DNA of 64,000 nt from Candidatus Roslinia caecavium (GTDB lineage: Bacteria; Bacillota; Clostridia; Monoglobales; Monoglobaceae), in the NCBI GenBank assembly GCA_904419955.1, contig CAJFTO010000005.1, positions 1 to 64,000 on the forward strand, in the 5' to 3' direction. The notes under the pieces were generated by a model. The model was given only the letters and a program-made list of their open reading frames with translations. It was not told the origin of the DNA and did not search any database. How positions within the stretch are numbered: position 1 is the stretch's first letter; the number at the start of each line of letters is the position of its first letter. Below, piece by piece: positions 6,373-58,562 of the stretch. Made by a program: the position numbers and the translations under genes.

Positions 6373-6410
6373 GGTATCAACTTAAAGTTAATGCGAAACG
6401 AGGGGAAATT

Positions 6411-6596
6411 AACGTGAAAGGCACTTTCACGTTAGCCTCCGACAGGATTAAAGCGCTCGCGCGAGATTTTTTCTTCGCGTATAGCGCATTCAAAAGCGCG
6501 TATAGGCGTAATAATCTCTTATCATTCCTTGCCCTGCGGATAAGAGAGATTTCATTATTATCTACGCCGAAGCAGGGCGGCGGAATGGAGATTATT
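6411..6596 (+). repeat. Structured RBS-carrying repeat, copy A
   Basis: A 186-bp element that also occurs twice at 58073-58431 on the other strand. It opens with a perfect hairpin (AACGTGAAAG / CTTTCACGTT, 3-base loop, 6411-6433), then a conserved CCTCCGACAGGAT, a GC-rich central arm with variable loop, a TCTCTTATC / GATAAGAGA stem (6515-6549 area), and ends GCAGGGCGGCGGAATGGAG-ATTATT directly before the ATG. The loop of the third stem contains CATTCC and GCCCTG, complementary to GGAATG and CAGGGC beside the Shine-Dalgarno sequence. The frame is open through this copy, but the ribosome binding site points to the downstream ATG. Confidence 0.85.
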
Positions 6597-7502
6597 ATGT
6601 ACAACCCGCAGCTTGACGTATTCATAAAGACCGCCGACGAAGGAAGTTTCACAAAGGCGGCGGATGAACTATACATATCGCCGACAGCGGTGATGAAACA
6701 GATAAATTCGCTCGAAAGCCGGATAGGCGTAAAACTCATAGAACGGACGAACCGCGGGATCAGTCTGACAGAGGCGGGGAAAGCGTTTTATAAGGAAGCG
6801 AAGCTGTTTATAGAGTATTCGAACAACGCTATAAGCAGAATAAAACGCGCCGCCGAGGACGACAGGTTCGTTATCCGCGTTGGGACGTCTATGCTCAATC
6901 CGTGCAAGCCGCTTATGGAACTGCTGAAATATTCGGACGACGTATATGATAAGTTCAGGATAAACATAATTCCTTTTGAGGACGAGCATACGAATATCCT
7001 GACGGTAATCGAGAGTATAGGGTCAAAATTTGATTTTATTTTCGCCGCCTGCAATTCGCCGCAGTGGCTGAGCCGCTGTAACTTTTTCAAGATAGGAGAC
7101 TACGACGTCTGCTGCGCGGTACCCGGTTTTCATCGTTTGGCGTCTAAGCGCAGACTTTCGGTAAGCGATCTGAGAGGAGAAGCGCTTATTATGATGGAGA
7201 GGGGCGGCAGTTATATCCTCGACGATCTTCGAGACAGATTATCAGCTCAGGAGCTCATGATAAAGATCGAGGACGCCTCGTTTTACGATATCGACGTGTT
7301 TAACCGCTGCGAACGAACCGGCGGCGTATTGCTTACCCTAAGCGGCTGGAGCGATATACATCCGTCTTTGATTACGATACCTGTCGACTGGGATTATAAG
7401 ATGCCTTACGGTTTGCTGTATCCGCTCAATCCTAACGAGCATATCTTGAGTTTTTTGGAGATTATAAAGGCCGCCGCCGATAAGGCCGAATATATAAAAT
7501 AA
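6597..7502 (+). CDS. LysR-family transcriptional regulator
   Basis: A 301-residue LysR-type regulator. The winged helix-turn-helix occupies residues 1-60 (GSFTKAADELYISPTAVMKQ, then LESRIGVKLIERTNRG). The rest is the periplasmic-binding-protein-like effector domain. The start is ATG at 6597, matching the usual family length and preceded by GGAATGGAG. A 78-codon in-frame extension upstream is the repeat element, not protein. It is divergent from the flavodoxin-reductase operon, its likely target. Its translation start region is supplied entirely by repeat copy A, so that element probably influences its expression. The inducer is unknown. Confidence 0.92.
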   Translation: MYNPQLDVFIKTADEGSFTKAADELYISPTAVMKQINSLESRIGVKLIERTNRGISLTEAGKAFYKEAKLFIEYSNNAISRIKRAAEDDRFVIRVGTSMLNPCKPLMELLKYSDDVYDKFRINIIPFEDEHTNILTVIESIGSKFDFIFAACNSPQWLSRCNFFKIGDYDVCCAVPGFHRLASKRRLSVSDLRGEALIMMERGGSYILDDLRDRLSAQELMIKIEDASFYDIDVFNRCERTGGVLLTLSGWSDIHPSLITIPVDWDYKMPYGLLYPLNPNEHILSFLEIIKAAADKAEYIK

Positions 7503-56517: not shown

Positions 56518-56544
56518 GGTTTTTACTAATAATATATATGACGC

Positions 56545-56624
56545 GCAAAGCTCTTGTTACGCAAAGTTTTTGTTACGCAAAGTTTTTGTTACGCAAAATT
56601 TTTGCTATGCAAAGTTTTTGCCGC
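56545..56624 (+). repeat. Five tandem 16-bp repeats
   Basis: Consensus GCAAAGTTTTTGTTAC in five head-to-tail copies (56545, 56561, 56577, 56593, 56609); copies 2 and 3 are identical, the outer ones diverged. They lie between the YdcF gene and the DUF378 gene, with no other gene in the 347-base gap. Confidence 0.9.
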
Positions 56625-57187: not shown

Positions 57188-58072
57188 TCAGTCCGCTTTA
57201 AACTCTGCGACGCTTTTTCCGTTTTCGGTAAATATCAGCTTATAAGCTCTGAGCGCCTGATACATATCGCCCTCGCCGCGCTTTGCGCCGTACTTAACGT
57301 CGCCTTTCAAAGGGTGTCCTATGTAGGCGAAAGAGGCGCGGATCTGATGCGTTCTTCCGGTATGCAGTTCGACCTCTAAATCGGTACTGTCGCTTTTTAG
57401 GTCGCAGCGCAGAACGCGGTAGCCGAGCCGGGATGAGCGCGCGCCCGGTTTGGGGGTTTGGGAAAACTCCATAAGATTATTTCCTATCTTATATATATAT
57501 CCGTTTATTTCTCCGCCTTCTTGGATCCGTCCCTCCACGGTAAGACGGTAGAACTTGCGTATCTCGCGGTTCTTGATCTTCTCGTTTATCCGCTTTAGCG
57601 CTCCGGCGTTCTTAGCCATTATTAAAAGGCCGGAGGTGTTACGGTCTATTCTGTGGCAAAGAGAAGGGATAAAGGCCCCCGGCGAGGAAATATCTATCTC
57701 GGACTTATCATACAGATAGCGTCTGGCGCGTCCCTCCGCCGAATCCTTATCCTCCGACTGTGAAAGCAGCCCCGACGGCTTATCTATTATAAGCATGTCG
57801 TCGTCTTCGAATACGACCTTTATATCCGGGCTTAATTTGAGCCATGGGATATCCGTATTTTCGCTTTCGAAAAATTCGTCGTTGATATATGCTTGCACCT
57901 TGTCGGAGGTTTTTAAAACGTATTTGAGGTCGGCGCGCTTTCCGTTTACCTTGACTCGCTTTTTCCTAAAGGCCTTGTAAATCATCCCGGGCGCGGCTTT
58001 CGACGCCTGTTTGAATATGAATTTGTCGAGCCTTTGCCCGGCCTCCTTTTCGGTTATTATAAATTCTTTCAT
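57188..58072 (-). CDS. RluA-family rRNA pseudouridine synthase
   Basis: A 294-residue pseudouridine synthase. An S4 RNA-binding domain (about 11-70) precedes the catalytic domain with HRIDRNTSGLL, where D143 is the nucleophile. ELHTGRTHQIRASFAYIGHP is the RluA-family C-terminal block. It resembles RluC/RluD (23S rRNA), but the target uridine is not readable. The start at 58072 is chosen because the ATG directly follows the GGAATGGAG end of repeat copy B1, as in the lysR gene; 12 further in-frame codons upstream belong to the repeat. Two tandem copies of the repeat precede it. Confidence 0.92.
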   Translation of the reverse strand: MKEFIITEKEAGQRLDKFIFKQASKAAPGMIYKAFRKKRVKVNGKRADLKYVLKTSDKVQAYINDEFFESENTDIPWLKLSPDIKVVFEDDDMLIIDKPSGLLSQSEDKDSAEGRARRYLYDKSEIDISSPGAFIPSLCHRIDRNTSGLLIMAKNAGALKRINEKIKNREIRKFYRLTVEGRIQEGGEINGYIYKIGNNLMEFSQTPKPGARSSRLGYRVLRCDLKSDSTDLEVELHTGRTHQIRASFAYIGHPLKGDVKYGAKRGEGDMYQALRAYKLIFTENGKSVAEFKAD

Positions 58073-58253
58073 AATAATCTCCATTCCGCCGCCCTGCGTC
58101 GGCGTCAATAGGAATGAATTTCTCTTATCTTCAGGGCAAGGAATGATAAGAGATTATTAAGCCCATGCGCGTTTCCGAGAGTTATACGCGAGGAAAATTT
58201 CGCGCGGGCAATCTAATCCTGCCGGAGGCTAACGTGAAAGGAACTTTCACGTT
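58073..58253 (-). repeat. Structured RBS-carrying repeat, copy B1
   Basis: Minus-strand copy immediately before the rluA ATG. It has the same opening hairpin (AACGTGAAAG / CTTTCACGTT, 58231-58253), the same TCTCTTATC / GATAAGAGA stem and the same GGAATGGAG-ATTATT end as copy A. It is about 94% identical by eye to B2, the differences clustering in the apical loop near 58170-58182. The long central arm GCCCGCGCG / CGCGC-AT-GGGC is clearer here than in copy A. Confidence 0.9.
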
Positions 58254-58431
58254 AATCTCCATTCCGCCGCCCTGCGTCGGCGTCAATAGGAACGAATTTC
58301 TCTTATCTTCAGGGCAAGGAATGATAAGAGATTATTAAGCCCATGCGCGTCTTAGAGCATTATACGCGAGGAAAATTTCGCGCGGGCAATATGATCCTGT
58401 CGGAGGCTAACGTGAAAGGAACTTTCACGTT
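58254..58431 (-). repeat. Structured RBS-carrying repeat, copy B2
   Basis: A tandem duplicate of B1 with a 178-bp period. Its GGAATGGAGATT end is fused directly to the AACGTG opening of B1, so no start codon follows it. This junction defines the unit boundaries. Copy A is preceded by a similar GGGGAAATT. Confidence 0.9.
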
Positions 58432-58562
58432 ATTTTCCTAATTTTATCGGGTCCTCCATATATATACCGGCGCGGCGTCTCCCGCTCGATCTGGCGATAT
58501 GTTTCGGCCGCGCGCGTTTATCGTCTTTTGATATAAGTCTATATGCCGGCTTTGCATTCGGC

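What the first reader, a model, noticed from the sequence alone, without database searches (positions are those of the whole stretch)
6411..6596. A repeat that supplies the ribosome binding site of unrelated genes
The same element of about 180 bp stands before lysR (6411-6596, plus) and rluA (58073-58253, minus), ending at exactly the same base before the ATG (GGAATGGAG-ATTATT-ATG). The two coding sequences are unrelated. So the element, not the gene, provides the translation start region. It could be a mobile 5' leader, a new cis-regulatory RNA or both. Three copies in 64 kb suggest many per genome.
Basis: seen in the sequence. Interest (0 to 1): 0.85.

Follow-up and report, generated by a model that had tools for sequence, protein, structure and literature searches.

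The report
Mobile element that replaces ribosome-binding sites
A ~180-base mobile DNA element has landed again and again in gut Clostridia exactly between a gene's ribosome-binding site and its start codon, bringing a new ribosome-binding site with it; sister elements with the same core do likewise at promoters and transcription terminators, a kind of signal-rebuilding parasite I could not find described.

Summary
Confirmed and extended. The host genome carries about 26 copies; relatives carry many more. In 153 distinct copies with a right end, 131 run into ATG and 2 into GTG of unrelated genes, 7 into a tandem copy and 2 into a contig end; 8 of the other 11 also abut an ATG on reading, leaving 3 exceptions. 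The left end lies at normal spacing behind an older Shine-Dalgarno (76 of 92; about 10 expected). Filled and empty sites in sister species show insertion between that SD and the start codon, with no target duplication. RNA covariation supports a three-hairpin fold, the last hiding the new SD. There is no Rfam match. A covariance model of the central hairpin reveals sister classes: one sits behind extended -10 boxes and ends in a -10 box; another sits behind host terminators (18 of 24; 0.2 expected) and ends in a terminator. Best read as a superfamily of non-autonomous mobile elements that invade a gene-expression signal and re-supply it. The mobilising enzyme is unknown: Y1/IS200-type and RAYT proteins were not found in the host assembly. 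Effect on expression is untested.

The parts
6400..6409 (+). older Shine-Dalgarno and spacer of lysR (GAGGGGAAAT) left of the element
   Evidence: same arrangement in 76 of 92 copies
6410..6596 (+). element copy before lysR (TAACG...GATTATT)
6410..6434 (+). hairpin H1 (TAACGTGAAAG-gca-CTTTCACGTTA), followed by GCCTCC complementary to an SD
6453..6508 (+). core hairpin H2 (approximate limits), shared by all classes of the superfamily; the lysR copy is a divergent one
   Evidence: covariation (on other copies); model R1
6510..6596 (+). hairpin H3: AATAATCTC / GAGATTATT and CATTCC..GCCCTGC / GCAGGGC..GGAATG, hiding the new SD (GGAG 6587-6590) and the ATG
   Evidence: covariation; unpaired probability about 0
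6597..7502 (+). lysR-type regulator gene whose start codon the element abuts
58073..58254 (-). gene-proximal element copy before rluA
58255..58432 (-). second, head-to-tail tandem copy upstream of rluA; joined as GGAGAT|TAACG
57191..58072 (-). rluA-type pseudouridine synthase gene (start at 58072; 3' end approximate, from 294 codons)

Best explanation
A non-autonomous mobile DNA element of about 180 bp that inserts on the coding strand immediately 5' of a start codon, 4-9 nt behind the gene's own Shine-Dalgarno, and carries at its right end a replacement SD and spacer (GGAGATTATT) joined directly to the ATG, so the split gene keeps a translation start. It is one class of a superfamily with a common core hairpin whose outer ends are fitted to the signal invaded: SD, -10 box or intrinsic terminator. 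Shown: polymorphic insertion, position, re-supply of the signal, conserved fold, several classes. Inferred: the site is chosen by pairing of the sequence 3' of hairpin H1 (TATGCCTCC, or ATTATAC, or A-rich) with the target on its left, and the right end is recognised through the matching arm of H3, in the manner of the guide sequences of IS200/IS605 single-strand transposons; an enzyme acts in trans. Also inferred: in mRNA the H3 stem hides the new SD and ATG and so may lower or condition translation.
For: About 26 copies in the genome before lysR, rluA, ttcA-like, dus, era, eno, atpC-like, spoIIIAA-like, radical-SAM, MocR-like and other genes (names from reading the translations, no family search was run). 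Census: of 153 distinct copies with a right end 133 start a gene by script, 7 run into a tandem copy, 2 into a contig end; 8 of the remaining 11 abut an ATG on reading. Left side: SD at natural spacing in 76 of 92, shuffles mean 9.9, largest 16. Filled/empty pairs: rimM, a glycosyltransferase, HPr and two others, SD-to-start length conserved in 5 of 5. Tandem units. Covariation: 24 of 47 pairs change on both sides, 0 of 500 shuffles. Sister classes: -10 class with TATAAT-type extended -10 boxes on both sides, terminator class with a host terminator stem in 18 of 24 against 0.18 expected and an empty site in L403. Flank-guide pairing exceeds all 1000 permutations of partners and all shuffled flanks. 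IS608 was engineered to pair its target with the 3' base of its left hairpin (PMC5934647), the same geometry.
Against: No enzyme: Y1 transposase (PF01797) and the RAYT query are not found in the host genome, and RAYTs also occur in genomes without the element. In a plain IS608-like insertion the target's last 4 nt should stay on the left; here TAAC is found there instead of the ancestral NNNT, which needs an added step such as hairpin-templated repair. The copy's own pairing advantage over permuted partners is small (4.82 against 4.58 mean run). The host -35 test for the -10 class was not above chance (3 of 12 against 2.7). Nearly all genomes are MAGs.
Confidence: 0.8

Rival explanations
1. 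It is primarily a cis-regulatory RNA (riboswitch-like or protein-bound leader) forming a regulon, spread by recombination because its control is useful.
For: Strong covariation, SD and AUG inside a stem, a conserved alternative helix TCTCTTATC/GATAAGAGA competing with the SD stem (98% paired), tandem copies as in glycine riboswitches (own knowledge).
Against: Genes are unrelated and differ between sister species; a decayed copy keeps the SD but has lost half of H3 (L069); the same core occurs at -10 boxes and terminators; no Rfam match.
Confidence: 0.15
2. The element inserts nearly at random and only insertions that leave a working start survive.
For: Several genes hit are expected to be essential (era, eno); insertion in such coding sequences would be lethal.
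Against: Copies would then also be found in convergent intergenic spaces and pseudogenes; only 3 of 144 non-tandem, untruncated copies are not cleanly at a start codon. The left ends follow an SD with start-codon spacing, which survival does not require. Empty alleles had T before the ATG in 10 of 10 (read) against 122 of 276 genes.
Confidence: 0.04
3. Assembly or binning artefact: collapsed or chimeric repeats at contig joins.
For: Several contigs end inside copies; nearly all are MAGs.
Against: Copies are in mid-contig with intact genes on both sides, differ from each other, and recur in rumen and gut MAGs from several independent projects.
Confidence: 0.01

Closest known systems
IS200/IS605 single-strand transposons and their non-autonomous derivatives (IS608, ISDra2)
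   Same: Hairpins at both ends, insertion without target duplication, strand-specific orientation, end and target sequences read by base pairing with guides inside the element; IS608 has been engineered to pair the 3' side of its left hairpin with the target (PMC5934647).
   Different: No Y1 transposase found in the host assembly; left tetranucleotide appears replaced rather than retained; targets are functional gene signals.
'Mobile attenuators' (Naville and Gautheret 2010, PMC2965389)
   Same: Related mobile sequences immediately upstream of unrelated genes.
   Different: Those are terminators of IS elements left by insertion at nearly random sites; here the insertion point is the start codon and the carried signal is the SD.
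BOX, RUP and SPRITE repeats of Streptococcus pneumoniae (PMC3049150)
   Same: Short, non-coding, structured, dispersed; BOX is modular, SPRITE is terminator-like.
   Different: RUP and BOX have TIRs; no start-codon specificity was found in the passages read; no sequence comparison was made here.
REP/BIME elements and RAYT transposases
   Same: Palindromic dispersed repeats thought to be mobilised in trans by a Y1-type protein.
   Different: No RAYT found in this genome, and RAYTs occur in relatives without the element.
IStrons (group I intron plus IS; PMC4227781)
   Same: A mobile element that makes its insertion harmless.
   Different: IStrons splice out; this element carries a replacement signal. 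No group I or II intron match in Rfam.

Membership tests
MITE (IS-derived miniature element) | terminal inverted repeats | tested here: not met
   first 20 against reverse complement of last 20: best 7-8 matches, ungapped, window copies only
MITE (IS-derived miniature element) | target-site duplication | tested here: not met
   filled/empty pairs show none
MITE (IS-derived miniature element) | small, non-coding, multi-copy, mobile | tested here: met
   178-187 bp in the window; no conserved ORF; about 26 copies; polymorphic between sister species
IS200/IS605-type element | hairpins near both ends, no target duplication | tested here: met
IS200/IS605-type element | insertion 3' of a fixed tetranucleotide that is kept on the left | tested here: inconclusive
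   left flank mostly ends in TAAC, but ancestral 4-mers were TTCT, TAAT, TTAT, TTTT, CATT
IS200/IS605-type element | Y1 TnpA available in the genome | tested here: not met
   PF01797 not found in G000 (94% complete) at E<=0.001
REP/RAYT | RAYT protein present with the repeats | tested here: not met
   one query protein, E<=0.001
known RNA family (Rfam 15, including group I/II introns and riboswitches) | score above gathering threshold | tested here: not met
   nothing credible at relaxed threshold on the lysR copy
riboswitch-like leader | ligand-dependent change of expression | not testable with these tools
   no experiment

The most novel reading that the evidence does not exclude
A superfamily of mobile elements whose ends have evolved into the expression signals they target (Shine-Dalgarno, extended -10 box, intrinsic terminator): site choice by self-encoded pairing with the signal automatically gives each element a copy of that signal, so each insertion splits and rebuilds a promoter, ribosome-binding site or terminator, moved by a still unknown enzyme.
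Probability: 0.55. Interest if true: 0.93.

Novelty: new variant of a known kind. Interest (0 to 1): 0.86.

Why it matters
Mobile elements normally damage the sites they enter or avoid them. Here a family repeatedly enters three of the most important short signals of bacterial genes and carries a copy of each, apparently a general solution to host damage. It would explain how dozens of unrelated genes, some expected to be essential, share one structured leader; give a natural example of the extended target pairing that was engineered into IS608; and make RNA-hidden ribosome-binding sites spread as a by-product of transposition. A search for regulatory RNAs could easily misread such leaders as a riboswitch regulon.

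Tried and rejected
Leader ORF: starting at the GTG at the junction, most copies stop early and at different places, so no coding constraint. Known RNA family: none. RAYT or Y1 transposase as partner: distribution does not fit. IS110-like bridge RNA with a shared core dinucleotide: a TA core fits the tandem junctions but not the empty sites; judged by eye, no search run. Longer autonomous copies: partial hits examined by eye; those seen are truncated, decayed or belong to other classes, and I saw no ORF between the ends. G103 has four copies with about 100 extra identical bases on the left but no ORF there. Solo GGAGATTATTATG as excision scars: 20-23 in G000, G003, G016 and G020 against 1-2 in three genomes without the element, but most lie on elements and some look native, so left open. 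Start-codon specificity by survival only: see rivals. The -35 test for the -10 class gave no excess.

Full report
OBSERVATION. The window holds three copies of one element: 6410-6596 (+) before a lysR-type gene, and a head-to-tail pair at 58073-58254 and 58255-58432 (-) before an rluA-type gene (coordinates from the sequence). The 3' ends are identical up to the start codon (GGAATGGAGATTATT-ATG) although the genes are unrelated. An internal 18-mer is found 3 times exactly, where 0.04 matches (even with 3 mismatches allowed) are expected. Gene names in this report come from reading the translations; no family search was run on them.

COPIES. A BLAST of the whole genome (2.81 Mb, 71 contigs, 94% complete) gives about 26 element places (36 matches including palindromic self-matches) with 78-95% identity to the rluA copy. 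Almost all full copies point at a gene start or a further tandem copy: ttcA-like, a nicotinate-phosphoribosyltransferase-like gene, dus, spoIIIAA-like, a nucleotidyltransferase, enolase, era, a CbiQ-like transporter, an oxidoreductase, an XRE regulator, a radical-SAM gene, atpC-like, AraC, MocR-like and others. One exception (L018) ends ATTATTAGG. Twenty-four of 60 relatives carry matches, again at gene starts (dapF, rlmB, upp, dut, rpe, rimM, gltB, ung by their sequence). An exact-pattern scan of named genomes places the element in Oscillospiraceae, 'uncultured Ruminococcus' and other Clostridia MAGs, several from rumen or animal gut.

POSITION. In the collected loci I found 153 distinct copies with a right end (sister species share some, so they are not all independent). 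A strict script rule (SD, 4-13 nt, start codon, open frame) accepts 133; 7 run into a tandem copy; 2 end at a contig end; of the other 11 (listed), 8 show an ATG within a few bases on reading, and L018, L162 and L307 do not start the gene cleanly. So 141 of 144 usable copies abut a start codon. On the left, counting from the GTG that follows TAAC, 76 of 92 host flanks hold at least 4 nt of the SD consensus with its end 4-9 nt before the junction, mode 7; shuffled flanks give 9.9 on average, at most 16. The junction is therefore where the start codon used to be.

EMPTY SITES. Sister genomes lack some insertions. rimM: empty GATAGGAATTTTTATG, filled GATAGGAAT|TAACG...GGAGATTTTT|ATG. A glycosyltransferase: AAAAGGAGAATTTCTATG, filled AAAAGGAGAAT|TAACG...GGAGATTATT|ATG. 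HPr: AAGGAGCAAAACATTATG, filled AAGGAGCAAAA|TAACG...GGAGATTATT|TATG. Two others behave alike (L083 against L114; L095 against L131). SD-to-junction length (junction taken before GTG) equals SD-to-ATG length in the empty allele in 5 of 5, there is no target duplication, and the last four ancestral bases are replaced by TAAC on the left. Ten empty sites all have T before the ATG, against 122 of 276 other genes with an SD (chance about 3e-4, my arithmetic). Tandem units join as GGAGAT|TAACG or GGAGATA|TAACG.

STRUCTURE. On 36 diverse copies a hand-written structure (H1, core H2, SD hairpin H3) has 96.5% of cells paired, 24 of 47 pairs with changes on both sides, and a covariation score no shuffle reaches; sliding the partner by 1-3 columns destroys it. 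The SD stem itself covaries (for example TTTTAATCTC with GAGATTAAA, AAAAATGCTC with GAGCATTTTT). A competing helix TCTCTTATC/GATAAGAGA is 98% paired but hardly varies, so it is only a candidate switch. In the lysR leader the new SD and the ATG are predicted to be fully paired; in rluA the ATG is paired and the SD partly so. Structure alone does not separate an RNA function from a DNA hairpin function. The copies show no conserved ORF. Rfam 15 has no match.

SUPERFAMILY. A covariance model of the core hairpin (covariation) finds the core in 25 of 60 relatives and 48 of 391 sampled genomes of the class, in 30 genera. Reading the flanks shows other ends on the same core. The -10 class follows TATGGTATAAT-like extended -10 boxes and ends in its own TATGGTATAAT, after which the sequence varies; two- and three-unit tandems occur (L324, L326). 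A -35 box left of it is not more frequent than in shuffles, so 'promoter' rests on the extended -10 alone. The terminator class follows a host stem with T-tract in 18 of 24 copies, 0.18 expected, and ends in its own hairpin plus T-rich tract; an empty site exists (L403 against L366). A second RBS class has another right hairpin (L302, L322, L328, L383).

MECHANISM. In each class the sequence 3' of H1 is complementary to the signal on its left (CCTCC to GGAGG, ATTATA to TATAAT, A-tract to T-tract), and the 5' arm of the right hairpin to the carried signal. Within the RBS class pairing of flank and guide exceeds shuffled flanks (4.82 against 3.53) and, slightly, other copies' guides (4.58; 0 of 1000 permutations reach it). 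IS608 chooses targets by pairing with guides and has been engineered to use pairing at the 3' base of its left hairpin (PMC5934647). This is a resemblance of mode of action. Membership in IS200/IS605 is not claimed: no Y1 protein was found in the host assembly and the left tetranucleotide is not simply kept. RAYTs do not follow the element either. The enzyme, the RNA effect and the replacement of four bases remain open.

NOVELTY. The literature search (one open-access library) gave 'mobile attenuators' (PMC2965389) and BOX/RUP/SPRITE (PMC3049150) as the nearest ideas; neither, in the passages read, has insertion at the start codon with a carried SD, nor one core with three kinds of signal ends. 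I file it as a new variant of small non-autonomous mobile elements; with the enzyme and targeting shown it could deserve more.

Noticed in passing
L324-L331 (G046), L332-L337 (G044), L301 and L347 (G056), L375-L376 (G236), L381 (G375): Sister elements with the same core hairpin placed behind extended -10 boxes and ending in TATGGTATAAT, some in tandem.
   Followed up: partly
L314-L323 (G034), L338-L342, L353, L366-L370, L377-L380, L384: Sister elements placed directly behind intrinsic terminators and ending in a terminator-like hairpin; near-identical copies in G034 and G326 suggest recent movement.
   Followed up: yes
L302 (G009), L322 (G034), L328 (G046), L383 (G205): A second RBS-type class with the same core but another right hairpin (GGGCAGAAAGGCTATGGA..).
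   Followed up: partly
L123, L129, L130; also G000:C8:45780 (L240) and L247: Genes with a solo or decayed right end (GGAGATTATTATG) where a sister species has the element or another SD: possible excision or deletion scars.
   Followed up: partly
L371-L374 (G103): Four copies of a longer element (about 100 extra identical bases on the left, no ORF) sharing the core hairpin.
   Followed up: partly
window 56544-56623: A 16-bp tandem repeat (CGCAAAGCTCTTGTTA, about five units).
   Followed up: no
L332 right flank (G044): Another repeat (CACCATATCCTTCC...GGATATGGTATAAT) that also ends in an extended -10 box, without the core hairpin.
   Followed up: no
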